Shown: piece after piece, positions 1 through 12,823 of the stretch
Numbering within the stretch: position 1 is the first letter of the stretch
Layout of the letters: each line of letters opens with the position of its first letter
Position numbers and translations under genes: made by a program
Assembly (NCBI RefSeq): GCF_000147335.1
Contig: NC_014534.1
Coordinates: forward strand, 404,773-468,772
Length of the DNA stretch: 64,000 bases
Reading direction: 5' to 3'
Origin: Gloeothece verrucosa PCC 7822
GTDB taxonomy: Bacteria; Cyanobacteriota; Cyanobacteriia; Cyanobacteriales; Microcystaceae
The notes under the pieces: model-generated
Told to the model about the DNA's origin: nothing
Database searches by the model: none
Seen by the model: only the letters and a program-made list of their open reading frames with translations

Positions 1-328
1 CCCATGACCCAGTATGATTGCGAATCCTGAAATTGATATAAGCTTTAATGTGCTGTACAGCATCAGGATTGCTTCCCAATACGTAGCGCGGGTTATCCCA
101 GTTACATATTTTTCCCAAGCCATTGCGCCCCATAAGTCTGTTGTGAACTAAACGAGCTAGAGCATCTTCTTGGTTTCCACTTGGAGAATCTAAATCTGGT
201 GAGTCACTGCCAACAAACATTTGGATACCTTGTTCGCGCAATACTAAAGCTAGAGCAGAAGTTCCCGACCGCGGTCCACCTACAATTATGTAAATTGGTG
301 ATTGTGTTGAGAGATGAGAAGATTTCAT
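1..328 (-). CDS. Sulfotransferase-like P-loop protein, N-terminal part (cut by window edge)
   Basis: The reverse strand reads from an ATG at 328 to the window edge, about 109 codons. The N-terminus has the pattern IYIIVGGPRSGTSAL, a glycine-rich P-loop followed by an RSGTSAL stretch. This matches the 5'-phosphosulfate loop of PAPS-dependent sulfotransferases and related kinases. A later GKICNWDNPRYVLG segment fits proteins annotated as sulfotransferase family. The reaction would be sulfuryl transfer to a hydroxyl or sugar acceptor, which cannot be confirmed because the C-terminal half is outside the window. It lies 38 bp downstream of the TruD-like gene on the same strand and is probably the last visible gene of the minus-strand cluster. 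A nucleotide kinase is the main alternative. Confidence 0.7.
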   Translation of the reverse strand, partial: MKSSHLSTQSPIYIIVGGPRSGTSALALVLREQGIQMFVGSDSPDLDSPSGNQEDALARLVHNRLMGRNGLGKICNWDNPRYVLGSNPDAVQHIKAYINFRIRNHTGSW

Positions 329-366
329 GAAATTTTTTAAAGAAGTCTCAAAACTTATTACTCAGT

Positions 367-1425
367 TTAACGAAACCGACATTCAATTTGTTTGAGCAGC
401 ATTGTAGCATAAGAACCTGTAGGGAGAAAGAAAGACATGGATAGCTTAACTTTACCTGGGTGAAATTCATCGGATTCTGGCTCTTGACAGTAAATTTTGG
501 TTGGGACTACTAAAAGACGGTTTTTCTTAGATGTAACTAGGTTTCCTTCTTCCTTCAATTGAAAAGCATCTATGGATAAATACAAAGGGATTTGTGTTAT
601 GTTCGTCGTCGGAATTTGCAATTTTCCTAGTTCAAGCTCTGGTAAATCTTTTGTATTTAAATATGATAATTCTTTGAGGAAATTAGAGACTTTTTGATTC
701 CAAATATTGCTATTGTAAGAAGAAATAAAGAAAGAGACTAGTTTATATCCTACTTGGTTCAAAAAAAAGTGACGGCAATTTTCTTCAGATTGATTGGTTG
801 GGAGATTGGCTTCGAGTTCTGGAGTTATGTTTTTTGTGCAGCAAAATTCTGCTAAAGCTGACTTCCAATTACCTTGAATGATTAATTCTCCAATTAAGTG
901 GGCGTTGTAGGGTCCACCGGGTAAGCCAAAACGCTGAAGATCGTAATAATTAATAAATTCAAAGTCATTATTTAAGTGGAAAGTTTCTGCTATCTTATCG
1001 GCTAATTCTACTGCGACTGAACGAACTGTGACAGTAAAGGTATTACCATGTAAAGCCTTTGGTGTTACTGTTTTTTTTCCGTATCCCAAAATTTCTTTGA
1101 TAGTGCAGATACCAGGACGATTAATATGTTGATTATTAAAACGAAGAACATCATTTTGATTTAGGTGTTTACGAACTGAAATCGTTTGTAGAGTAATCCC
1201 ATCTTCGTCCTTTAATCCTTGGGCACTAACATCTTTGGGATTGAGATCGAAATATTGACAGATTATTCGCTGCACTTCAAAAGTTGTGTATCCTACTTTT
1301 TCTACCCAAATATAGGTGTATGTAGCATCTTCTCGATCACAAAGTTTTGGAAACAGAGAAACTTCTTTAACTAAAAAGTCTTTTGGTGTATGCTTAACTT
1401 TGAAAATGGATTTTGTATATTTCAT
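367..1425 (-). CDS. TruD-family pseudouridine synthase
   Basis: This 352-residue protein is close in length to E. coli TruD (349). It carries the TruD landmarks in order: an N-terminal FKVKHTPKDFLVKEV stretch, the GLKD motif with the catalytic aspartate at about residue 73, a GNTFTV segment matching the conserved N-x-F around E. coli N129/F131, and NYYDLQRFG, the conserved QRFG region. Family members turn uridine into pseudouridine, normally at tRNA position 13. All visible catalytic residues are present, so the enzyme is probably active. Its setting is not a housekeeping one, because it sits among glycosyltransferases, a phosphatase and an exporter. TruD relatives such as PumJ and MalD make the C-nucleoside of pseudouridimycin and malayamycin, so a biosynthetic role is possible. 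That role is inference; tRNA modification remains the default. Confidence 0.82.
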   Translation of the reverse strand: MKYTKSIFKVKHTPKDFLVKEVSLFPKLCDREDATYTYIWVEKVGYTTFEVQRIICQYFDLNPKDVSAQGLKDEDGITLQTISVRKHLNQNDVLRFNNQHINRPGICTIKEILGYGKKTVTPKALHGNTFTVTVRSVAVELADKIAETFHLNNDFEFINYYDLQRFGLPGGPYNAHLIGELIIQGNWKSALAEFCCTKNITPELEANLPTNQSEENCRHFFLNQVGYKLVSFFISSYNSNIWNQKVSNFLKELSYLNTKDLPELELGKLQIPTTNITQIPLYLSIDAFQLKEEGNLVTSKKNRLLVVPTKIYCQEPESDEFHPGKVKLSMSFFLPTGSYATMLLKQIECRFR

Positions 1426-1959
1426 GAGCTAGGTAATTGTAGGTGTTTTTGGACTCAGTACGAGAAAAAAATTTACAGGTGGGATTTTTTCAGCAACCTA
1501 ACAATTATTATCCTTGACTTGAGCCGACAAAAATATAAAGAAATATTAAAATTTGGGTAAATAGCTATTTCTGTAAAGGTTTCTCTTTAATTATCGAGGT
1601 CAGATTTGACCGTGCTTGGCTTGGCTGGTTGTAGAGATGGGTTTTATCGAAGCGAGATCGCAGTGGACAAGCCATATTACGCGTAACTCCGTCATTCTAT
1701 CAACGCGTATCTTCTAATATATTTGTTTTAATCGGCGCGAAATTTTAATACATTAGTTTTAGTTGTCGCCGGTTATTTAATTTTTTAATATTTCAAGCGA
1801 TGGCTAATTTAAATAGGCCATCATATTCAGCTACACGGATTTTTTTCATTTCTTTACATCAAGACCGCTCTAGTTGTCAGTTTAGCCAAGCCCTGCGTTA
1901 ATTATTTAAAGCTCATTGCGCATCTCGTAGGACATTTTGACTGAGAAATTGGGGAAAAG
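1426..1959. other. Intergenic region inside the minus-strand cluster
   Basis: There are 534 bases between the phosphatase gene and the TruD-like gene with no convincing open reading frame. A short inverted repeat (GATGGC at about 1799 and GCCATC at about 1817) could form a weak hairpin. The gap is large for an operon, so the TruD and sulfotransferase-like genes may have their own promoter, but I see no strong -35/-10 pair. Confidence 0.4.
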
Positions 1960-2517
1960 TTAGGAACGATCTTCTAGGTAAATAAAACCTCCATTCCTAA
2001 TATTATGTGTCTGAAGTCCTTGCTTCCACGACCAGTTATAATGGGCGGCACAGATCATCTTAGCAAGATCGCCGTGGGTAACAACAATAATATTTCGAGA
2101 CAAATAGGTAGTTTTCAGGTTTTCCAAAACTCTTTTAGCCCGGGTTAGTAGCAGAGGAAAGCTCTCAGAACCCTCTGCATCTAGAAAATAGTTGACCCCA
2201 TCAAATTGCAAAATTTGCTTGCAATAATATGGAATGTCAGCGATCTTTTTACCTGTTAAACATCCAAAATCTCTTTCAATCAATTCAGGACACACTTTTA
2301 AATGCTTACAACTTAAATATTCTGATATTATCTTGGCACTAAAATAAGCACGTTTGAGTGGCGATGTGATAATTACTTCAGGATGAACAGACAAAAGTTG
2401 AGTAGCTGTAGATTTTATTTGTGCCTTGCCTGCTTCTGTTAACCCTAAATCTCTGTGCCCGTTAAGTATCCCCTTGGCATTGTCTTCATCTTGACCATGA
2501 CGAACAATAACAATCAT
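1960..2517 (-). CDS. Histidine phosphatase family protein (phosphoglycerate-mutase-like)
   Basis: This is a 185-residue protein of the histidine acid phosphatase superfamily, branch 1. The phosphohistidine motif RHG is at residues 6-8 (MIVIVRHGQ), the LTEAGKAQ helix follows, TSPLKRAYFSA supplies the second arginine, and VVTHGD near residue 148 gives the second catalytic histidine. Members hydrolyse phosphomonoesters such as sugar phosphates, nucleotides and alpha-ribazole phosphate. The substrate cannot be read from sequence. The gene follows a glycosyltransferase gene by 8 bp, so the two are almost certainly co-transcribed. Beside a TruD homologue, a possible substrate is a (pseudo)nucleotide; beside glycosyltransferases, a sugar phosphate is equally likely. 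Confidence 0.82.
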   Translation of the reverse strand: MIVIVRHGQDEDNAKGILNGHRDLGLTEAGKAQIKSTATQLLSVHPEVIITSPLKRAYFSAKIISEYLSCKHLKVCPELIERDFGCLTGKKIADIPYYCKQILQFDGVNYFLDAEGSESFPLLLTRAKRVLENLKTTYLSRNIIVVTHGDLAKMICAAHYNWSWKQGLQTHNIRNGGFIYLEDRS

Positions 2518-2525
2518 TATTCAGC

Positions 2526-3299
2526 TCACTTAAATAAATAAAATTCTTGCCGGATAGTTTCATTTAATTCACAGGGTTGCGTTTCAAGCATACCACTTCT
2601 AGCATAAAGATTCTCTCCATGACCTACATGGTAGATTGCCCCAGGAAACGGCAAAGGATTAAGGTCGTTTCCCTGTTCTGCGAAGTGTTTTTTTAGCCAC
2701 CGGTGACTACCAAGAATATAGAGAAGGTAATATTCATCTATCTCTGTCAAAATTTCTTTCTGAGAAGGTTTATTAGGTAAAGTTTCAGGGATTTGATAAA
2801 GATCAGAGCGAATTATATGACTGGTTCCACAATATAAATAAAACTCTTTAAGCAAGCCCAAAGAGTCTTTTTGGCGGTCATATAGATATCCTTGGTTGAA
2901 AAACCAGCCGTTTTCTTGACTGTTATTGGCAACAAAACCTACTAAACGATTGCTAATATAGTCGTCAGCATCAAAAAACATGATGTGACTACAGGGGTAA
3001 CTTTTTGCATGCTGAAGTCCTAGCAGGTATTTGCATCCGCGATCGATGCGTAATGCTGGCATACCAATAGATGCAGTTTGAAGAGAACTTGGAGGTGGAA
3101 GCTCAACTTCAAGATACTCAATATTGGAATGTTGGAATGTTACCGCTGGTTTCTCATTACAGACTACTAACACTCGAAAACGATCATCAATCTGATTACA
3201 AACGGATTTCAATGTTATCTCTAACAGAGAGGTAACCAGTTCTAGGCTTTTACTATTCCGATTTTGAGGATGCCTCAGAGAAGTGATAAATGTTAACAT
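2526..3299 (-). CDS. Glycosyltransferase (GT-A type, putative rhamnosyl-transferase-like)
   Basis: This is a 257-residue soluble protein with no signal peptide or membrane segment. The N-terminus (MLTFITSLRHP, then TLKSVCNQIDDRFRVLVVCNE) resembles nucleotide-sugar-binding starts of GT-A enzymes and of the putative rhamnosyl transferase family. The HIMFFDADDYISNRLV segment near residue 105 supplies a DxDD metal-binding motif. Glycosyl transfer from a nucleotide sugar to a glycan or small-molecule acceptor is expected; donor and acceptor are unknown. It is tightly spaced with the phosphatase (8 bp) and with the larger glycosyltransferase upstream (32 bp), which indicates one operon. Confidence 0.65.
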   Translation of the reverse strand: MLTFITSLRHPQNRNSKSLELVTSLLEITLKSVCNQIDDRFRVLVVCNEKPAVTFQHSNIEYLEVELPPPSSLQTASIGMPALRIDRGCKYLLGLQHAKSYPCSHIMFFDADDYISNRLVGFVANNSQENGWFFNQGYLYDRQKDSLGLLKEFYLYCGTSHIIRSDLYQIPETLPNKPSQKEILTEIDEYYLLYILGSHRWLKKHFAEQGNDLNPLPFPGAIYHVGHGENLYARSGMLETQPCELNETIRQEFYLFK

Positions 3300-3331
3300 G
3301 AGCCAAAAAATATATTCTGGTAGATTTACGA

Positions 3332-4843
3332 TTAACGTTCTGTTTTATACCCTGACGTTTCGCTTGCTACAAGCTTACGTAGAAGGTACAAACATGGACC
3401 CACAGACTTGAGAAATGGGCGAGTTACGGATGACAAAGCAAAAGGCCACCGGGGTAAGTCGTCGGAGTAAAGATGTGAATCTAATAAGAGTCGAGTTAAA
3501 GACCAGCGAGTCCAAGCTTCAAGAAAGAAGAACCCTATAATAGCTCCTGCTATTAGCCACATACCTGTCAAGAGAGTCACTAGCAAAACCAAAATTCGCA
3601 TAGGCCCTGTGGCAGCCCACAAAATATTGGCCATAGCTTGCTCAAACAAACCTCGAATATGCCGAAATTTAGCTGGAGAACTAAAATAAATAGCCGCACG
3701 TTCATAAGGGTGTTTATAGTCTGACTGACCCTCAAACCAAGTTGCACTTTGCCGTATAAAATCAAAGATATGATTTGGAACACTACAGAAATCAAAGAAA
3801 GGCAGTGGCACAATCTTTTGCTCTGCTAAGGATAGCATGATCCCTGTTGGTAGATCATCGATAGGGGTTGATTCAGGAAATCCTGCCTTTAAAAGCCAAT
3901 CTGCGCGGAGAAACTCGCCGTGTCCTATACAATAAGTAAACGTTCTCCCATAGCGTTTACCCTGTGTAAGTTCAGCGTTAATCTGTAGTTGACGTGGTAT
4001 CTCAATACAAACCGACCGCGCTGTCTGTAACCAAGCCTCATTTTTCATGAATAGGTCTAGGTTGTCTGTATCTTGTAAATAAACTGGGTATTGCTGAAAC
4101 GCTGCTGAACGTTCTTTATTAGCAGCAATGGATAGAGCTATTAGACTTAGACGAGAAGGTCTCGAATCTGCATCATACACTCCGATATAAGTGGAGTCTG
4201 GCGTAGTAATCCTACCCTGCTCAGACAAAACATTCAAGGCATAATTCATCTGACTAGCTTTGTTTCCATGTATATTGGGATAGTGAATATGCAAAATGGG
4301 AAAGCGAAAGTCAATTTCCTTAATAACTTGTTCAATAATGTCTTTTGTAGAGGGTCTTTTAATGAACTGTTTTATAGTATTTTCAACCACTTGAGGCTTT
4401 GTTAAAAAATCTTTAGCCCAAGATTGAAGGCGATGGGTAGCAAAGTTAGATGAATGTTTCCACAAAAAAACATTCCCTCTATGTCCTGCTTTCAAGTCCT
4501 TTACTAGAGCTTCAACAGCTTTTTCTTTCTGTAGCTGTGTTACCTCTTCTCGCTCAGTAGTAATAGGTACAACAAGCACACGATCTACTGAAAAGGATAA
4601 AGCATTTATAGCAGCTAGTAGCGGAGCTACATTTTCCTGTTCGCCGAGCATGGGAAGAAACAGAATAATTTTAATACAAGGAACATGATTTTCATTGGCT
4701 TCTAGTTCCTGGATACTTTGCTGCTGTTCAACCATTTGTGCAATGGTATAGCGGCCAATGTAGAAACGCCAGAGAATATTTATTACTAAACTTAAAGTGT
4801 AAAAGTATACTAAAGCTTTGATAAGAGTCATCAATTGGGTCAT
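3332..4843 (-). CDS. Membrane-associated family 2-like glycosyltransferase
   Basis: This is a 503-residue protein. A transmembrane helix lies at about residues 8-26, a cytosolic catalytic region in the middle, and one or two hydrophobic helices at about 415-445. Catalytic-site features are IILFLPMLGEQENV (nucleotide-binding start), YIGVYDADSRPS near residue 222 (DxD metal motif), PIDDLPTGIML (likely catalytic acidic residues) and RQSATWFEGQ (a QxxRW-like position). This is the layout of polymerising or lipid-linked GT2 enzymes, but the length and weak similarity prevent a substrate call. It is in the same orientation as its neighbours and is probably a core assembly enzyme of the cluster. Confidence 0.7.
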   Translation of the reverse strand: MTQLMTLIKALVYFYTLSLVINILWRFYIGRYTIAQMVEQQQSIQELEANENHVPCIKIILFLPMLGEQENVAPLLAAINALSFSVDRVLVVPITTEREEVTQLQKEKAVEALVKDLKAGHRGNVFLWKHSSNFATHRLQSWAKDFLTKPQVVENTIKQFIKRPSTKDIIEQVIKEIDFRFPILHIHYPNIHGNKASQMNYALNVLSEQGRITTPDSTYIGVYDADSRPSRLSLIALSIAANKERSAAFQQYPVYLQDTDNLDLFMKNEAWLQTARSVCIEIPRQLQINAELTQGKRYGRTFTYCIGHGEFLRADWLLKAGFPESTPIDDLPTGIMLSLAEQKIVPLPFFDFCSVPNHIFDFIRQSATWFEGQSDYKHPYERAAIYFSSPAKFRHIRGLFEQAMANILWAATGPMRILVLLVTLLTGMWLIAGAIIGFFFLEAWTRWSLTRLLLDSHLYSDDLPRWPFALSSVTRPFLKSVGPCLYLLRKLVASETSGYKTER

Positions 4844-5064
4844 AAATATTCGCGCTGGTGATGAATGATATTAATTATTTTTTTGAGGACCGAATATTAA
4901 ATCCAATCCTTACCAATATGATAATGGCTTCTATTTCTTGCCTAACGCTTGAAAAGCGAGTGCAACGGGTTGCAGTCTATTTTTTAGTTTGGCGATCGCC
5001 GTTTCATCTAACCACCTCATTGTAACTTGATTTTGCCCACATTTTTGATGCGTTTGCCCGGCCT

Positions 5065-5868
5065 CTAGCTACCTGTAGAACGGTAATATTTTAAGGACAG
5101 TCTCCAGATTTGCAGACAGATTAGTAGAAAAAGAAAGCCAGCTAAAGGAGAGATCAACTGAAAAATCAGTTTGCTCCCCAATGGATCTTGATGGTCGAGA
5201 ATATTTAAAACTGGATAATAGCTCACACAAGCCAAGGGAATAACAAAAGTAAAGAAACGGCGAAACCAAGGCTGGTAAATGGCTAATGGATACTGAGCCG
5301 TTTCTACACCTCCATAAGTCACAATATTCATAATTTCTAGGCTTTCCGTACTCCAAAAAGATAAGGTCGCCTGAAGGATAATCAATCCGTAGAAGAGACA
5401 AGCACCACTTAAAATAGTTGCCATCAAGAAAAAAATTTTATCTAGATGCCAAGTAATATTAAGAACTGAAGCAGACCAAAATAATACCAATAATCCTTGT
5501 ACTAAACGTCCAAACCGACGTAATGTTATTTCCTGTGCAGCAAGCTGTAGAACCGTGCTTCGTGGTCGTAGTAGGAAGCGATCGAACTCACCACTTTTCA
5601 AAAAACTGGGGAAAAGTTCAAACCCACGAGAATTTGTATCGCACAGAGCAAAGGCTATGTTAACAATACTATAGAAAAAAGCAATCTCCGGCAAACTCCA
5701 ATCCTGTAGGTGATCGAAACGAGTTAGTAGGATAAGAATTGCCACAAATTCAAGTCCTGTACTGAGGAAATTCCCAATCAATAAAAGAATAAAAGATGTT
5801 CGATATTGCATCTGAGAACGAAGGGATGCTTTTAAATACTGACCATAGAGAAATAAATTATCCAACAT
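5065..5868 (-). CDS. ABC-2 type exporter permease (COG3694-like)
   Basis: The start is placed at the ATG at 5868 (MLDNLFLYGQYLKASLRSQMQYR) because a strong AAGGAGG lies just upstream and the preceding gene ends 2 bp away. A longer in-frame extension would overlap that gene without its own ribosome site. The 267-residue protein has about six hydrophobic helices and a cytosolic segment DTNSRGFELFPSFLKSGEFDRFLLRPRS, typical of the ABC-2 permease family that pairs with COG4587 permeases. It would form one half of the membrane channel, with the 5871-6662 product as the other half and the 6659-7639 ATPase as motor. Confidence 0.85.
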   Translation of the reverse strand: MLDNLFLYGQYLKASLRSQMQYRTSFILLLIGNFLSTGLEFVAILILLTRFDHLQDWSLPEIAFFYSIVNIAFALCDTNSRGFELFPSFLKSGEFDRFLLRPRSTVLQLAAQEITLRRFGRLVQGLLVLFWSASVLNITWHLDKIFFLMATILSGACLFYGLIILQATLSFWSTESLEIMNIVTYGGVETAQYPLAIYQPWFRRFFTFVIPLACVSYYPVLNILDHQDPLGSKLIFQLISPLAGFLFLLICLQIWRLSLKYYRSTGS

Positions 5869-5870
5869 AA

Positions 5871-6662
5871 TTATCCTCCTTGAATCACAAGACGACGAGT
5901 ACCAAAAGCGAAAATCAAGCGACCAAAAATAACAAATGTTACAATCCAAGCAAGTTGATGCAATACTGCCGATCCCAATTCATAAGGTGGAATATGTCCG
6001 ACATAAAGTTGTAAAGGAACGTCAACAAGGTCTCGAAAAGGAAGAAAATTAAGAATAGATTGAAACCAGTCTGGAAAGAAAGGTAAAGGTACAATAATCC
6101 CAGAAAAAATCAGCACAAGAATATTTATAAATTGGTTTATACCTTGACCTGCAATTGTCCAAAGTAGAATAATACTAGCTAAAGTAGATATGGCACTTGT
6201 TAACAGCAACGCCCCTAAGAGAGCCAAAATTGCTGCCGCTCCTGCACCGAAGGAAGCAGGTGGTTTCAGCCCAAAAAAAAGCAAAGCCAATGCGAAGATA
6301 GGTAAAGTTCGTAGCAATACCTGAGCAAGACGGCTTGCCATTGCACGGAAGTACCAAAAACTGTAGAGGTCTACTGGTTTTAGTAACTCATAACAAACAG
6401 TACCAACACGCATCATTGTCAGCAGATCATTATCAATTGAGAAGATACTTACAGAAAACATGGCTTGTCCAAGCCAGACATAATCTGTTGTTTCTGAATG
6501 TGTCATTGGTTGTTCAATCACATTAGAACTGTAAAGTGCATTAAAAATCATGACACGGATCAAACCCCAAAATAGTTGGGTAAGTGTTCCAAATATCGCT
6601 GCTGTTCTATATTGTAAAACTGTACGAATTCTAGCACTGAGAATAGCAAAGTAAGGACTCAT
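5871..6662 (-). CDS. ABC-2 type exporter permease (COG4587-like)
   Basis: This is a 263-residue integral membrane protein with about six helices (examples: LLRTLPIFALALLFF, IILLWTIAGQGINQF, LVLIFSGIIVPLPFF). The FRDLVDVPLQLYVGHIPP segment before the last helices is common in this permease family. Its start codon overlaps the ATPase stop by 4 bp (6659-6662) and its end lies 2 bp from the next permease, so the three exporter genes form one translationally coupled unit. Exporters of this type carry lipids, oligosaccharides or small natural products. The cargo is unknown but should be the product of the surrounding biosynthetic genes. Confidence 0.85.
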   Translation of the reverse strand: MSPYFAILSARIRTVLQYRTAAIFGTLTQLFWGLIRVMIFNALYSSNVIEQPMTHSETTDYVWLGQAMFSVSIFSIDNDLLTMMRVGTVCYELLKPVDLYSFWYFRAMASRLAQVLLRTLPIFALALLFFGLKPPASFGAGAAAILALLGALLLTSAISTLASIILLWTIAGQGINQFINILVLIFSGIIVPLPFFPDWFQSILNFLPFRDLVDVPLQLYVGHIPPYELGSAVLHQLAWIVTFVIFGRLIFAFGTRRLVIQGG

Positions 6663-7639
6663 CGTTCTCCTTCGTATAAACGAGCAATAATTTCTTCAAT
6701 GGGTGGATTCTCTACAAAGAGATCCTGTACTGGATATTGAGCAGTGATGCGGCTAATTAGATCGGTAACAGGAGTTGTATCTGGAGAAAAGCGTAGATGA
6801 ACTCGTTGATTCTGATGATAAATGACCTCAGCATCTGGATCTTGGATTTCGGGGATTTCCTCAGCAAGATCGATAATAAGTAGACGTTCTTTGGATACGC
6901 TAGATCTTAAATCCCTTAGGCTACCATCGGAGAGAATTTTCCCTTGATCGATTACGATGACCCGATCACATAGTGCTTCAATGTCATCTAAATCGTGGGT
7001 TGTAAGAATAATTGTTGCTTTTCTTTCCTGGTTGAACTGTCTAATAAAATCACGAACAGCCAATTTGGATACTGCATCTAACCCAATGGTGGGTTCGTCA
7101 AGAAAAAGTAGCGGAGGACTGTGGAGTAAAGCTGCTACGAAATCCGCACGCACTCGCTGACCTAGACTAAGCTGACGTACAGGGATATCCAAGAATGCAG
7201 ATAAGTTTAGTGTGTCAATCAACTCATCTCGTTGGCGGCTATAGTCAGTGGTTGGTATTCGATAAATCCGGCGCAGGAGATCGAAAGATTCGATAACTGG
7301 AAGATCCCACCACAATTGAGTGCGCTGACCAAAAACAACACCGATCTGTCTAACGTGTTCAATGCGGTTTTCCCAAGGTATACGACCAAAAACTTCACAA
7401 TGCCCGGAATCTGGAAACATAATTCCCGCCAGAATTTTTACGGTACTAGATTTACCAGCACCATTAGGACCAATATATCCAACAAGCTCACCTTGCTCTA
7501 AGGTGAAAGAGATATGATCGAGGGCATAGATTTCACGATAATTACGATGAAAAACACCTTGAAATGAACCCCAAAGTCCAGGCTGTCGTTCTGCAATACG
7601 ATAGGTTTTCACTAAATCTTTAACAATAAGTTGAGACAT
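6659..7639 (-). CDS. ABC exporter ATP-binding protein (COG4586-like)
   Basis: This is a 326-residue ATPase. The Walker A motif GPNGAGKSS is at residues 57-65, the signature LSLGQRVRADF near 157, Walker B LLFLDEPTIGLD near 178, and the H-loop LTTHDLDD near 212. A C-terminal extension of about 90 residues follows the nucleotide-binding fold, as is usual for the COG4586/DrrA-like type. It powers export through the two permeases encoded directly downstream, with which it overlaps. The ATPase plus two unlike permeases is a complete importer-independent exporter without a periplasmic binding protein. Confidence 0.92.
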   Translation of the reverse strand: MSQLIVKDLVKTYRIAERQPGLWGSFQGVFHRNYREIYALDHISFTLEQGELVGYIGPNGAGKSSTVKILAGIMFPDSGHCEVFGRIPWENRIEHVRQIGVVFGQRTQLWWDLPVIESFDLLRRIYRIPTTDYSRQRDELIDTLNLSAFLDIPVRQLSLGQRVRADFVAALLHSPPLLFLDEPTIGLDAVSKLAVRDFIRQFNQERKATIILTTHDLDDIEALCDRVIVIDQGKILSDGSLRDLRSSVSKERLLIIDLAEEIPEIQDPDAEVIYHQNQRVHLRFSPDTTPVTDLISRITAQYPVQDLFVENPPIEEIIARLYEGER

Positions 7640-7749
7640 GAGTTTCTTTCAATTATCTATCAAATTATTCTTCTAAAGACTATTCGTAAAATAAACCTTA
7701 AAAAGCTACGGGTCTTGGTATCAAAATATACCGAAGAGAACCCACATTA

Positions 7750-9411
7750 TCATTGCTGGCTCAACAGATGATAAACTTTAATGTCCTTTACAATAGCTAC
7801 CAAATCAGTCTTCTCGTTGGTTTCCCAAAGAATAATACAAATTGATCCCTGTGTAAGTTCATCACTAAAACTTTGAAGTAATAGTTCATCATTCACATAG
7901 AGGCGAAATACTGCTCCACAAATATCAATCCGCAAAGCATACCATGTTCTGACTTTCATGTCGAAAGGAACAGAAGCCATATTATTTTCCCACTTTCCTC
8001 TCACACGGCGATCAAAGAATGCTCGTCCAGCTTCAAATCTATACCGATAACGATTGTCAAAATCTTGATATCTGAAGTTAAAAGCAAATTCTCGAAAGTC
8101 AGTAACTCGCTGTACTTGCATATGCCAAGATAGATTAGTCCAGGAGTAGAATAGAGGGTCAAGATAAACATAGCACCATTGATCTGCGGAAAGAGTTTTT
8201 CCTGAAAAGCTGATTCCCTCGGAGGTAAATTCAACGTCTTGGGGAAGTTGATATTGAGAATACAATTTCCATTCTTTGGCAGAATTTAGTGAATGATAAT
8301 TATACAATAGTTCAGATGTTATTATCCATTCTTTTTTTTCAAGTAATCCTAGTGCTTGTGGTAGTTGGTCAAAGTAGCGATGATTCCAGTTAGGTACTTG
8401 ATAATCTGTACATTTTTTGCATTCTTCGATTAGAGTGGGGACATCTTCCATCTTTTCAGCCCATTTTACGAAAGCAAGCTCTTTAAACCAAAGAATTCCA
8501 AAACTCATCTTGTGTCCAATAGAAGGTAATGCAACACAAGGGCGTTGGCAGACAATAGCAAAGATTAAACCGTGAAATCTATCTGTTACTACTACCTCTG
8601 CTTGCTCAATTTTAGCTAGAGTTTCTTCAACAAATGTCTGTCTTTCATGGGGGAGAACCGGGTCTGACCTTCGAATATCCATCAGTATGCTATTGTGGGA
8701 GAATTTGGCGATTAATGCTTCTTTTTCTTGAAGGGAAAAAGCCGATTCAATATCATTATCATTTCTAAGACAAAAGACAATCTTTGCCTTATGATTTTGG
8801 CGTTTTCTCGGGGGAAGGGTAAGTACAAAATCTGGGATACAGAAGGTGGGTGTTTGTGGTAACAAGCTTTCTGAAAGGTGAGCACTGTATAAATCTCGGC
8901 ATAAGATCGTTAATTTATGATGAGCCTTATAAATTTCACTAGTTTTTACAGTTTGGCTTTTACCATGTTCTGTATTAGTAAAATAAATAGTTTGAGGGAG
9001 ACTAATAATTACATTTTCTTTAAAAGTTTGTATCAATCGTCTTCGAACACTCTCCGTTGACATATAGCGATCGCCTAAATTCCCTCCACTATGAAGTATG
9101 ATGATGTCGTCTTTAGAAATTAAATAACGAAGAGATGGTAGAATTTTTGTAACTTGGTCTTGATCGAGTTCCAAAATTAGTAAGGAGGGAAAATGCTTAC
9201 GAAGCCAATTTTGAATAGCAATAACTTGTGCTTGATCTCCTGCATTTCTAATCCAAGGGGGCGGGAGTAAAGCATAAACTATTTTTCTTTTTTTTATTAG
9301 ATTAAGGTGTTTTAGATAAAAAAGAGTGTTTTTCCATATGCCTCTAATCCCAAGGGGGACTGGGGGCAATTCAGCATAATATAGTCTGCCTTGTTTTGAA
9401 GTAGAGTTCAT
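7750..9411 (-). CDS. Polysaccharide pyruvyl transferase family protein with C-terminal beta-sandwich-like domain
   Basis: This is a 553-residue protein. Residues about 40-350 match the polysaccharide pyruvyl transferase fold: RNAGDQAQVIAIQNWL near the start, HSGGNLGDRYMSTESVRRRLI, then VVTDRFHGLIFAIVCQRPCVALPSIGHK, the conserved donor-binding region with DRFHG. Members transfer pyruvate from PEP or a sugar-like group to glycans. Residues about 380-553 are extra: WKLYSQYQLP onward is rich in short beta-strand patterns and aromatic residues (WCYVYLDPLFYSW, FNFRYQDFDNRYRYRF, WYALRIDICGAVFRLYVND), resembling a concanavalin/laminin-G-like carbohydrate-binding fold. The fusion suggests acceptor-glycan recognition. 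It is the first gene of the minus-strand cluster, 110 bp upstream of the exporter genes. Confidence 0.78.
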   Translation of the reverse strand: MNSTSKQGRLYYAELPPVPLGIRGIWKNTLFYLKHLNLIKKRKIVYALLPPPWIRNAGDQAQVIAIQNWLRKHFPSLLILELDQDQVTKILPSLRYLISKDDIIILHSGGNLGDRYMSTESVRRRLIQTFKENVIISLPQTIYFTNTEHGKSQTVKTSEIYKAHHKLTILCRDLYSAHLSESLLPQTPTFCIPDFVLTLPPRKRQNHKAKIVFCLRNDNDIESAFSLQEKEALIAKFSHNSILMDIRRSDPVLPHERQTFVEETLAKIEQAEVVVTDRFHGLIFAIVCQRPCVALPSIGHKMSFGILWFKELAFVKWAEKMEDVPTLIEECKKCTDYQVPNWNHRYFDQLPQALGLLEKKEWIITSELLYNYHSLNSAKEWKLYSQYQLPQDVEFTSEGISFSGKTLSADQWCYVYLDPLFYSWTNLSWHMQVQRVTDFREFAFNFRYQDFDNRYRYRFEAGRAFFDRRVRGKWENNMASVPFDMKVRTWYALRIDICGAVFRLYVNDELLLQSFSDELTQGSICIILWETNEKTDLVAIVKDIKVYHLLSQQ

Positions 9412-9930: not shown

Positions 9931-11418
9931 TAAGTACCTGGACATAAATAAAGTTGACTGTGTTAAGAAATGTAACAGCGAACGCGGCTTGTTCATTCCC
10001 CCTCAAAATAGTATTTTTGTTCTGTCCACCAGCGCGGGAAATATTTAAGGTGCGGCTTGGAACAACTCATAGCGGCTAAAATTAAATTTACTTTAATAAA
10101 TTTGTTAAATTTTCTTTTTAATGAAACAATAATAAGGTACAATTAAGTTGTTAATAATTTATGTCATCTCCTCCATTAAGAGTATTTTTAACCCAAAAAC
10201 AAGAAAAAATATTATTTGAATTAAATAGAAACCAGAACATTCCCATAAGAACGAAAGATAGGGCACTAATTTTACGATTATCCTCTCAAGGGTGGAAAGT
10301 AAAAAAAATTGCTATGTTTCTCCTTTGTTCAACAGTTACAGTCAGAAAAACTATTCATAGATGGAATAAAAAAGGCTTGATGGGATTATGGGATAAGCCC
10401 CGTCCAGGGAGAAATCCAACCTGGAACCCTGAAAATTTTGAAAAAATAGAAGAGTTACTAAGCGATGAGCAATGTACTTATAATAGCGGAAAAATACAAC
10501 AAAAATTATTGACTGAGCAACAAGTTTCTTTAAGTAAGCGACAAATTCGCAGAATATTAAAAAAAAAAGAATATCTGTGGAAAAGAACAAGACAGTCAAC
10601 TAAAAGCAAACAAGATAAAGAATTAAAAGCGGTCAAAAGTGCCGATTTAGATATGCTAGAATTGGCAGAAGCAGTAGGCGAAATTTGTTTAAAATATTTA
10701 GATGAGTCAGGTTTTGTTCTCTGGAGTCCAGTAGGATATAGCTGGATTAAAAAAGCAATACAAAAAAAAATGGAACAGACACCTAAACGAGGAAAAAGAA
10801 TTAGCATTTGTGGATTATTAGAATTAGAAAAAAGCTTTGATTATGCTTTGGTGTTAGGTGGGGTAAAAAAGCATTCTTATATAGAAATAATGAATTGGGA
10901 AGCAGAAAAAGCTAATCAAAGATTATTAGAAACTGGACAAATAACAGTAGTTGTTCAAGATAATGGTTCTAGCCATACAGCTAAAATTGTTAGAGAAAAA
11001 CATCTCTGTTGGGAAAAACAAGGCTTGTATATCTTTTTTTTGCCTAAATATTGCTCAGAAATGAACCGAATAGAAAATGAATGGCTGAGACTCAAAACCG
11101 ATGAAATAGCTGGAGAAATGTTTGAAGACGAATATGATTTGGCAATGGCTGTCATTGAAGTCGTAGAAAATAGAGCAGCAAAAAAAGGATATGTAACAAA
11201 CCGTTACCGATTTCCTTCAAAACTATCTTAAAAAATAAATTTAATAATTTTCAAGTCTATTTTAGTTGCAACTAAAATAGGTTTAAATAATAATGATTAT
11301 CATTATCATACATAAGAAAAATTAAGTAAAATTATCCTAGTTTTTAAAAGAGAGCGGCTAAAATTTTTGGACTTAAAAAAAGTTAATATAGCAAACTTTA
11401 TTTATGTCCAGGTACTTA
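9931..11418 (+). mobile_element. IS630-family insertion sequence, complete with TA target
   Basis: Inverted ends AGTACCTGGACATAAATA (from 9933) and its complement (ending 11416) bound 1484 bp and are flanked by TA at 9931-9932 and 11417-11418, the usual IS630 target duplication. The element holds one transposase gene in the plus direction. It sits inside the 3' part of a HTH-NACHT gene read from the other strand. Ends, target and transposase all look intact, so it could still be mobile. Confidence 0.9.
10161..11231 (+). CDS. IS630 family transposase
   Basis: This is a 356-residue protein with an N-terminal helix-turn-helix region (KVKKIAMFLLCSTVTVRKTIHRWNKKG) and a C-terminal DDE nuclease. 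Catalytic motifs are LDESGFVLW (first Asp), VVQDNGSSHTA (second Asp) and YCSEMNRIENEW (Glu). It cuts and joins element ends at TA targets. Unlike the second IS630 copy in the window (25.65 kb), it has no frameshift or stop. Full length for the family is 340-360 residues. Confidence 0.95.
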   Translation: MSSPPLRVFLTQKQEKILFELNRNQNIPIRTKDRALILRLSSQGWKVKKIAMFLLCSTVTVRKTIHRWNKKGLMGLWDKPRPGRNPTWNPENFEKIEELLSDEQCTYNSGKIQQKLLTEQQVSLSKRQIRRILKKKEYLWKRTRQSTKSKQDKELKAVKSADLDMLELAEAVGEICLKYLDESGFVLWSPVGYSWIKKAIQKKMEQTPKRGKRISICGLLELEKSFDYALVLGGVKKHSYIEIMNWEAEKANQRLLETGQITVVVQDNGSSHTAKIVREKHLCWEKQGLYIFFLPKYCSEMNRIENEWLRLKTDEIAGEMFEDEYDLAMAVIEVVENRAAKKGYVTNRYRFPSKLS

Positions 11419-12823
11419 CCTGATTTAACCATCCGATATCTATTGCTAACTTACACGAGGGTTTATCAATTTCCCCAAGTACCTGAACAAGTTGAGACTG
11501 AGTTATACGAAAGCGAGAACACGGCTGATCTATCGAAACTTTGGCTAATTTTCCTAAAGCTTTATTTAATTTTTTTCGTTGCTTTGAATTTGTGGAAAAA
11601 TATTCATCCTTCCATTGATAAAAGGCATCCACAAACCACTGATAAAGCGCGGCTTTTGTTTCTGGTAACTCTCCCTTTCGTCTGTGCCACGCATAACATA
11701 ATAAAGATAACCGTAGAGGATTTTTAATTAAATCTCTAATCCGTTCTTTTTTAGATTTCAGTAATTCCGTTTTTAGACTATTCCCTAAATCGGGTGATTT
11801 AACAAACCACTTATCAATAAACTCATCCCTTTGAAACTCAGAAAAATTTAAATTTTTATAAACATCAAACCCGTCAAGATAATTTTTCCCTGCATCCCAT
11901 ACATTCAACCGACAAGTTAATACCACATGCGCTGATGCAATCCATCCCCTAATTTGAGAATTAATTGCATATAGAGGGTTATTTACTCCCATTTCATCCA
12001 CCCCATCCAATAATAACCAGACCTTACCCCCATCAAATAACTCTACTAACCCGTCTTCCATCGCTTCAGTAACTCGCCCTACTTTTAAGGCTTCTTTTAG
12101 CCATACTTCTAATAGATACTCTTCTAAAGTTCTTCCCTGGAAATCTGCCAATGATACCCAAATAGCCGCTTCTTGATCTCTTGTTTGAAATACCCAATCA
12201 GCTATTTTTTGTAACTGGGTGGTTTTTCCAGCACCGGGTTCGCCAATAATAGCGATTCGCCGTCCTTGACTTTGAGGACTATTACCCTTTCCTAAAACTT
12301 CTGTAAAAAACTCTTCATTCTCAAATTTCTGGGTTACTTCATAGGTTGAAACTTTATATAAACTCGAACCTTGTTCAGGAGATACATCCCCGTTCTGTTT
12401 TTCCTGCCCTTGCCCTCTTCTTTCTAGTAATCCCAAAGGAACATACATATCTAAATAATTAAACGTTATTCCGTCTTTACTGGTTAGAGGATTAAGAGTT
12501 AAACGTTTTCTCTCTTCCAACATTGTTTGACAAGTTTGATACTCAATGACTATTTTCTGAGGCGAGTTTGTATTCTCATCTTCTCCGATAATCTCGGTTA
12601 ACTCTAAACCTAAGACTTTTGTGATCTCCGTCGCTATATCTATAAAGACTCGTTTTCCATTCAAAAATCTGTTCACACTACTGCGAGACATATTAGATAA
12701 CTCGGCAATACGTTCATAAGCCAAGTGTTTACCGTCTTTTGTCCGTTGAGAGGCTTTAAGCTTTTTTAATCCTGATTCTGTAGCACTAACCCGACTATTT
12801 GATTGACTCATAACTTTAATCAT
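11402..12823 (-). pseudogene. HTH-NACHT STAND NTPase, 3' end cut off by IS630
   Basis: The visible product is 473 residues. An N-terminal XRE-like helix-turn-helix (AYERIAELSNMSRSSVNRFLNGKR, about 35-58) is followed by a NACHT NTPase with P-loop IIGEPGAGKTTQ near 192, Walker B VWLLLDGVDEMG near 270, and the helical region LRLSLLCYAWHRRKGELPETKAALYQWF. The gene runs into the IS630 end after DIGWLNQV, and the last three codons (STW T) come from the element. Family members continue with a HPTFQEYF segment and sensor repeats, which are missing. Removing the element adds only about ten codons before a stop, so the distal part was lost separately. NACHT STAND proteins act in anti-phage defence or signalling; this copy is probably inactive. 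Confidence 0.8.

What the first reader, a model, noticed from the sequence alone, without database searches (positions are those of the whole stretch)
1..9411. TruD-type pseudouridine synthase in a glycan/export cluster: possible C-nucleoside or nucleoside-glycan pathway
A TruD homologue with intact GLKD, N-x-F and QRFG motifs lies on one strand with a histidine phosphatase, two glycosyltransferases, a pyruvyl-transferase-like enzyme, a sulfotransferase-like gene and a dedicated ABC-2 exporter. TruD relatives supply pseudouridine in pseudouridimycin (PumJ) and malayamycin (MalD) biosynthesis, where a phosphatase step is also expected. A cyanobacterial cluster of this type would be new to my knowledge. 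The link to a nucleoside product is inference.
Basis: partly seen in the sequence, partly recalled or inferred. Interest (0 to 1): 0.78.

Follow-up and report, generated by a model that had tools for sequence, protein, structure and literature searches.

The report
Cyanobacterial pseudouridine-glycan gene cluster
A cyanobacterium carries a rare gene cluster in which an enzyme related to those that make pseudouridine for antibiotics sits with sugar-, sulfate- and pyruvate-transferring enzymes and an exporter, which points to an unknown secreted compound built on pseudouridine.

Summary
Window 367-1425(-) is a TruD-family protein with intact motifs, in a one-strand block with a histidine phosphatase, two glycosyltransferase-like proteins, a PS_pyruv_trans protein, an ABC-2 exporter and a sulfotransferase-like gene that runs off the window. 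(1) In a 34-row tree the protein falls in a 19-row clade (support 100/99) with TruDs of pseudouridimycin-type and malayamycin-like loci; E. coli, archaeal and two other TruDs of its phylum lie outside, and grouping with those two is rejected. (2) It is the genome's only TruD, but only 3 of 386 genomes of the phylum have any. (3) A genome of another family has the same set beside a TruD fragment at a contig edge: sulfotransferase 72%, glycosyltransferases 60% and 66%, PS_pyruv_trans 60%, phosphatase 59% identity. Core enzymes of the pseudouridimycin and malayamycin pathways were not found in the set, so it looks like a third, uncharacterised type of TruD-dependent pathway. The product, the enzyme's substrate and every tailoring step are inferred. 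One correction: MalD is the malayamycin carbamoyltransferase, not its TruD.

The parts
1..328 (-). Sulfotransferase-like gene (N-terminal part in the window; whole gene 235 aa, G000:C6:404393-405100)
   Evidence: Sulfotransfer_3 0.0047, below cut-off; 72% identical to L053:203-883
367..1425 (-). TruD-family pseudouridine synthase of the clade that holds TruDs of natural-product loci, 352 aa
   Evidence: Pfam TruD 1.7e-41; tree; AU test; model mean pLDDT 89.2; fold match to TruD/PUS7
1960..2517 (-). Histidine phosphatase (branch 1), 185 aa; substrate unknown, proposed nucleotide or sugar-phosphate phosphatase
   Evidence: Pfam 2.5e-33; best PDB relative phosphoserine phosphatase 1; below the CobC and other NCBIfam cut-offs; 59% to L053:6258-6809
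2526..3299 (-). Glycosyltransferase-like protein, 257 aa
   Evidence: weak Glycos_transf_2, 0.03, below cut-off; 66% to L053:2433-3206
3332..4843 (-). Glycosyltransferase-2-like protein, 503 aa, with hydrophobic ends by my reading
   Evidence: no Pfam hit itself; its 60%-identical relative L053:901-2403 hits Glyco_trans_2_3 at 2.8e-4, below cut-off
5065..5868 (-). ABC-2 permease (ABC2_membrane_6); the listed TTG ORF starts at 5949, an internal ATG at 5868 abuts the upstream gene
   Evidence: Pfam 2e-44; start choice is my reading
5871..6662 (-). ABC-2 permease (ABC2_membrane)
   Evidence: Pfam 4.2e-07
6659..7639 (-). ABC exporter ATPase; best NCBIfam model DrrA, below its cut-off
   Evidence: Pfam ABC_tran 1.7e-24; 42% to the chromosomal copy G000:C1:5705275-5706225
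7750..9411 (-). Polysaccharide pyruvyl transferase domain plus a C-terminal domain that is perhaps lectin-like (weak matches only), 553 aa
   Evidence: PS_pyruv_trans 2e-27; PDB 5ax7 pyruvyl transferase 9.5e-08, levanase/galectin at 0.04-0.65; 60% to L053:3274-4938

Best explanation
The cluster is a dedicated pathway that makes pseudouridine outside RNA and converts it into an exported, glycosylated and probably acidic (sulfated and/or pyruvylated) compound. The TruD-like enzyme would isomerise a free uridine nucleotide to the pseudouridine nucleotide. The histidine phosphatase would release the nucleoside or remove a cryptic phosphate. The two glycosyltransferases would add sugars, the PS_pyruv_trans and sulfotransferase-like enzymes would decorate it, and the ABC-2 system would export it. 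SHOWN: the TruD's place in the clade that holds TruDs of natural-product loci, and conservation of five partner genes beside a TruD fragment in a second genome of the order. INFERRED: the substrate, the order of steps, the acceptor of each transferase, and the exporter's cargo.
For: Tree: the window TruD lies in a 19-row clade (100/99, stem 1.19) with TruDs from pseudouridimycin-type and malayamycin-like loci and apart from 15 other TruDs. Holding it with the two other TruDs of its phylum costs 109.7 log units, p-AU 1e-70. Differences outside the search pattern: W242 in 19/19 against F in 15/15; Q346 in 19/19 against E in 14/15; D162 in 17/19 against 2/15; a block of 30 columns missing. It is below the cut-offs of all 7 NCBIfam TruD models listed. 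Five partners are 59-72% identical in G418. The 503-aa protein has a match at 1e-20 in 1 of 386 phylum genomes, itself; the G418 version matches 3 of 388 order genomes: itself, G000 at 60%, and a partial 32% match in G386. TruDs of the clade also lie beside group 1 glycosyltransferases in two Lachnospiraceae bins (one by Pfam in L025, two in L026). Genetics of PumJ, read as passages: delta-pumJ gives 20 against 200 units of pseudouridimycin and is rescued by added pseudouridine (PMC7955054); a proposal pairs PumJ with a phosphatase (PMC7835738).
Against: No product is known. Only two genomes were found with the set. G418 is a 71%-complete genome in 400 contigs, so its contig could be misbinned, and only about 46 residues of its TruD are on the contig. 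The nearest TruD relative, L010 (39%), has quite different neighbours (guanylate-kinase-like, dihydroorotate-dehydrogenase-like, CYTH). The kinase-like and BpsA-like genes next to the set in G418 have no relative in G000, so the pathways may differ or the window's may be incomplete. The exporter is not on the G418 contig. 534 bp separate truD from the phosphatase gene. Glycosyltransferase and sulfotransferase assignments are below Pfam cut-offs. Histidine phosphatases are common: 55 of 58 related genomes have a distant match and G000 has 5 matches. PumJ itself was not in the tree.
Confidence: 0.68

Rival explanations
1. The TruD makes free pseudouridine, but the product is a cell-surface polymer or glycolipid in which pseudouridine is an attached building block, not a small diffusible molecule.
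For: The 503-aa protein has hydrophobic ends by my reading and a weak GT2 match in its relative; PS_pyruv_trans proteins and ABC-2 exporters are common in surface-glycan clusters (general knowledge).
Against: No polymerase, flippase, lipid-carrier primer enzyme or chain-length regulator was recognised among the nine genes of the block; the exporter ATPase scores best with the DrrA model, below its cut-off; nucleoside-bearing glycans of this kind are not known to me.
Confidence: 0.17
2. The TruD is an RNA modification enzyme that was acquired horizontally and merely sits beside a glycan cluster.
For: It is the only TruD in the genome; catalytic motifs and fold are those of TruD/PUS7.
Against: Clade and fixed differences; recurrence of the same neighbours beside a TruD at another locus; most genomes of the phylum sample have no TruD (383 of 386 without), so a role in tRNA is not expected.
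Confidence: 0.08
3. The TruD works on the uracil of a nucleotide-sugar (for example UDP-sugar to pseudo-UDP-sugar), giving an activated donor with altered fate for the two glycosyltransferases.
For: Co-location with two glycosyltransferase-like proteins here and with glycosyltransferases in L025 and L026; the phosphorylation state of the early substrate is called an open question (PMC10127198, passages).
Against: No precedent known to me; a phosphatase fits release of a nucleoside better.
Confidence: 0.05

Closest known systems
PumJ/SapC of pseudouridimycin biosynthesis (Streptomyces)
   Same: TruD-family enzyme of similar length (SapC 346 aa); stand-ins chosen by gene content (L030, L012, L014) are in the same clade; sits in a dedicated cluster with transporters
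   Different: 28% identity to the L030 protein; the window set shows no amide ligase, amidinotransferase, GMC oxidoreductase or class III aminotransferase
Malayamycin-like TruD loci (here L008, L013, L016, Xenorhabdus L019-L021, L023, L024; in part L011 and L018)
   Same: Clade TruD, with a phosphatase partner in those loci that hold one; both sets hold an enzyme type that draws on PEP (EPSP-synthase-like there, PS_pyruv_trans here; an analogy from general knowledge, the folds differ)
   Different: No EPSP-synthase, radical SAM, 2OG oxygenase, aminotransferase or carbamoyltransferase recognised in the window set
tRNA pseudouridine(13) synthase TruD
   Same: Fold and catalytic motifs
   Different: Other clade, below NCBIfam cut-offs, shortened insert, W/Q substitutions
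Lachnospiraceae TruD loci L025/L026
   Same: Clade TruD near group 1 glycosyltransferases and a tyrosine phosphatase (L025) or PHP domain (L026)
   Different: Different glycosyltransferase family; no PS_pyruv_trans or sulfotransferase in the ORFs scanned (11 of 19 in L025, 10 of 17 in L026, TruD apart); TruD only 26-27% identical

Membership tests
tRNA pseudouridine(13) synthase TruD | Scores above curated TruD equivalog cut-offs | tested here: not met
   TIGR00094 108.7 bits against cut-off 172.2; NF002160 110.5 against 428; all 7 listed TruD models below cut-off; no control TruD was scanned
tRNA pseudouridine(13) synthase TruD | Groups with E. coli or other ordinary TruDs in a tree | tested here: not met
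tRNA pseudouridine(13) synthase TruD | Modifies U13 of tRNA | not testable with these tools
   needs biochemistry
TruD superfamily (fold and catalytic motifs) | GLKD, GNxF and QRFG motifs and pseudouridine synthase fold | tested here: met
   (VIA Z 23.0 to 5kkp, 302 aligned, rmsd 3.7; Z 21.8 to 1si7, 268 aligned, rmsd 4.3)
PumJ-like TruD of C-nucleoside pathways | Falls in the clade of TruDs from C-nucleoside clusters | tested here: met
   100/99 support; PumJ itself was not in the tree, Streptomyces loci of matching gene content stand in
PumJ-like TruD of C-nucleoside pathways | Encoded with pathway genes conserved with it | tested here: met
   five partners at 59-72% identity in G418, beside a TruD fragment; the nearest TruD, L010, does not share them
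PumJ-like TruD of C-nucleoside pathways | Supplies free pseudouridine in vivo | not testable with these tools
   needs knock-out and LC-MS
Pseudouridimycin gene cluster | Amide ligases, amidinotransferase, 5'-oxidase, aminotransferase | tested here: not met
   no such Pfam family in the window set; apart from TruD, only the ABC ATPase matches an L030 ORF at E<=1e-3 (the ORF choice for GC-rich loci was a simple longest-first one)
Malayamycin gene cluster | Enolpyruvyl transferase, radical SAM, 2OG oxygenases, carbamoyltransferase | tested here: not met
   no such matches among window or G418 cluster proteins
Polysaccharide pyruvyl transferase | PS_pyruv_trans domain above cut-off | tested here: met
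   97.3 bits against 25.3; the acceptor is unknown and the CsaB cut-off is not reached

The most novel reading that the evidence does not exclude
Pseudouridine is used as a building block or aglycone of an exported, pyruvylated and sulfated glycan: a third kind of TruD-dependent natural product besides pseudouridimycin and malayamycin, and a first case of pseudouridine entering glycan chemistry, with a possible parallel in Lachnospiraceae.
Probability: 0.3. Interest if true: 0.87.

Novelty: new variant of a known kind. Interest (0 to 1): 0.68.

Why it matters
C-nucleosides resist enzymes that cleave ordinary nucleosides (general knowledge), and the two TruD-derived ones in the review seen here are antibiotics (PMC8724604, passages). 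A set with glycosyltransferases, in which the core enzymes of those two pathways were not found, would define a new structural class. The clade of TruDs seen here in Actinomycetota, Pseudomonadota, Bacillota, a Parcubacteria bin and this genome also offers material for the open question of what substrate these enzymes take.

Tried and rejected
Housekeeping TruD: rejected. Cargo of the neighbouring type V-K CRISPR-associated transposon: rejected, since that element's ends appear to lie near C6:383.2 and 390.0 kb (the first end rests on one short motif), before the cluster at 404.4-414.2 kb. Plasmid status of the 474-kb contig: the two end pieces tested share no similarity, so circularity is not shown. 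Relatives in phages and viral contigs: none found. E. coli genomes: no megablast match, which only finds near DNA. The 534-bp gap matches only itself in the pieces compared. Relatives of the 503-aa protein on Streptomyces plasmids (L073, L074) and in G386 (L072) are 26-31% identical; no other cluster protein, TruD included, matches in those stretches. A PDB profile search with the 503-aa pair found nothing credible. A second structure prediction was not run.

Biases to keep in mind. The genome scan that gave most clade members used the patterns P[EK]DFLV[QK]E and [YA][AQ]GLKDED. The E74/D75 signature (19/19 each, against 0/15 and 1/15) is therefore circular and is not used as evidence, and the sample of both groups is shaped by these patterns. 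Rows left out of the tree: L038 (partial), L017 (near-copy of L016), L009 (near-copy of L008), and the G418 fragment (too short). The tree tool flags unusual composition in 13 of 34 rows. PumJ, SapC and the malayamycin TruD themselves were not fetched; Streptomyces and other loci stand in by gene content. Synonymous sites between the two copies of five genes are saturated (pS 0.77-0.86 against pN 0.20-0.29); this shows constraint on protein sequence but gives no rate ratio.
Full report
WHAT IS THERE. The window is G000:C6:404773-468772 of a 7.84-Mb, 7-contig genome. Matches elsewhere in the window to plasmids of Calothrix, Gloeothece and Rippkaea fit a cyanobacterium. On the minus strand, in order of transcription, lie: a PS_pyruv_trans protein (9411-7750), an ABC ATPase (7639-6659), two ABC-2 permeases (6662-5871; 5868-5065), a 503-aa glycosyltransferase-like protein (4843-3332), a 257-aa one (3299-2526), a histidine phosphatase (2517-1960), a gap of 534 bp, TruD (1425-367) and a sulfotransferase-like gene (328 to beyond the window start; 235 aa in full). 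By my reading of the ORFs, transposase-like genes flank the block at window 10161-11231 and L002:16719-18852.

ONE TRUD, IN A PHYLUM THAT USUALLY HAS NONE. The genome has one TruD. A TruD family search finds a match in 3 of 386 genomes drawn from the phylum: this one and two of another family. A protein search over 291 genomes of the order finds 2: this one and a fragment in G418. "Only copy" therefore does not mean housekeeping.

WHERE THE TRUD BELONGS. A scan of genome contigs gave 31 relatives and a plasmid search two more. In a 34-row maximum-likelihood tree the window protein pairs with a Parcubacteria bin's protein (L010, 39% identical; 100/99) inside a 19-row clade (100/99). That clade holds Streptomyces loci whose gene content fits pseudouridimycin clusters (L030: class III aminotransferase, GMC oxidoreductase, ATP-grasp, arginine-deiminase-family protein) and loci with malayamycin-like content (Xenorhabdus L019; Legionella bin L016; L013). 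E. coli TruD, archaeal and Phycisphaerales TruDs and the two other TruDs of the phylum are outside. Forcing the window protein together with that pair is rejected. The clade differs from the other 15 rows at W242 (19/19 against F 15/15), Q346 (19/19 against E 14/15), D162 (17/19 against 2/15), and by loss of a 30-column block. The E74/D75 signature is not counted, because the scan pattern selected for it. The predicted structure (29-row alignment, mean pLDDT 89.2, pTM 0.84) matches PUS7 5kkp (Z 23.0) and E. coli TruD 1si7 (Z 21.8).

THE NEIGHBOURS TRAVEL WITH IT. Contig C55 of G418 (same order, another family, 71% complete) begins inside a TruD (64% identical over 45 residues). It continues on one strand with the sulfotransferase-like gene (72%), the 500-aa protein (60%), the 257-aa one (66%), the PS_pyruv_trans protein (60%), an unknown 352-aa protein, the histidine phosphatase (59%), a BpsA-like protein and a kinase-like protein. 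The 503-aa protein has a match at E<=1e-20 in 1 of 386 phylum genomes (itself). The G418 version finds 3 of 388 order genomes: itself, G000, and a 32% partial match in G386 whose fetched stretch holds none of the other genes. For the phosphatase, 55 of 58 related genomes have a match at E<=0.001, but outside itself the best is 1e-9 at 28% identity, and G000 has 5 matches; so a close relative was seen only in G418. For the exporter ATPase, 17 of 24 genomes (G000 included) have a match at E<=1e-60; G000 has a second, chromosomal copy at 42% identity, like the copies of its relatives. BpsA-like and kinase-like relatives are absent from G000 (1 of 4, 1 of 2 and 1 of 7 genomes, each time G418 itself). 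Against a single conserved unit: the nearest TruD, L010, has other neighbours.

HOW IT PROBABLY WORKS. In the pseudouridimycin pathway, PumJ is proposed to turn uridine nucleotides into pseudouridine nucleotides and a phosphatase to release pseudouridine (PMC7835738, passages). In a pumJ mutant the product is 20 against 200 units, and feeding pseudouridine rescues it (PMC7955054, passages). The origin of the nucleoside and its phosphorylation state are described as open, with evidence that the next two enzymes use unphosphorylated nucleosides (PMC10127198, passages). By this analogy the window's TruD and phosphatase supply pseudouridine, the two glycosyltransferases glycosylate it, the PS_pyruv_trans and sulfotransferase-like proteins add acidic groups, and the ABC-2 system exports the product. 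Only the analogy of the first step rests on clade membership; the rest is inference from gene families. A BpsA-like gene also lies by a clade TruD in Plastoroseomonas (L015, with an AdoMet decarboxylase; 25% identical), so aminopropylation may belong to the G418 variant. Group 1 glycosyltransferases also lie near clade TruDs in two Lachnospiraceae bins (one by Pfam in L025, two in L026).

WHAT IS KNOWN. A passage of PMC7955054 says that earlier work, its reference 17 (which I take to be Sosio et al. 2018, not held), found PumJ in diverse microorganisms and foresaw undiscovered C-nucleosides. The general idea is therefore in print. Seven paper searches (I read listings and the passages cited) showed no report of a cyanobacterial TruD-type C-nucleoside cluster or of one with glycosyltransferases, PS_pyruv_trans and sulfotransferase genes. 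The library lacks most subscription papers.

VERDICT. A real, conserved and rare cluster, and by gene content a new variant of TruD-dependent C-nucleoside biosynthesis. Its product is unknown.

Noticed in passing
L075:9402-11390 and L002:391-4997 (G000:C6 about 383.2-390.0 kb, outside the window): A type V-K CRISPR-associated transposon by my reading of the ORFs, not by a family search: TnsB, TnsC, TniQ, a Cas12k-like gene in two overlapping frames, a two-repeat CRISPR array and end-like repeats with terminal TGTACA.
   Followed up: partly
L019, L020, L021, L023 (and L024 in part): Xenorhabdus loci combine a malayamycin-like set (in L019: EPSP-synthase, radical SAM, 2OG oxygenases, aminotransferase, phosphatase, AAA kinase-like, MFS) with three proteins related to ones next to TruD in the Streptomyces loci L012 and L030.
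   Followed up: partly
L016, L017 (Legionella bins), L008, L009 (Mesorhizobium plasmids), L013: Malayamycin-like TruD loci outside Streptomyces.
   Followed up: partly
L025:2048-10957 and L026:1896-11011: Lachnospiraceae TruDs near group 1 glycosyltransferases (one by Pfam in L025, two in L026), PP-loop domains, and a tyrosine phosphatase (L025) or PHP domain (L026).
   Followed up: partly
L015:9905-16577: Plastoroseomonas TruD with AdoMet decarboxylase, BpsA_C, spore-photoproduct-lyase-like and condensation-domain genes.
   Followed up: no
L010:11666-12799, L022:12257-13453, L016:4284-5543: Dihydroorotate-dehydrogenase-family iron-sulfur proteins recur near three clade TruDs; dihydropseudouridine chemistry is only a thought.
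   Followed up: no
L073:1898-8844 and L074:660-8719: A Streptomyces plasmid block seen twice: FAD oxidoreductase, glycosyltransferase, a distant relative of the window's 503-aa protein, NUDIX protein, phosphotransferase.
   Followed up: no
window 11402-12823: A NACHT-domain protein with a helix-turn-helix start, 473 aa, beside the cluster.
   Followed up: no
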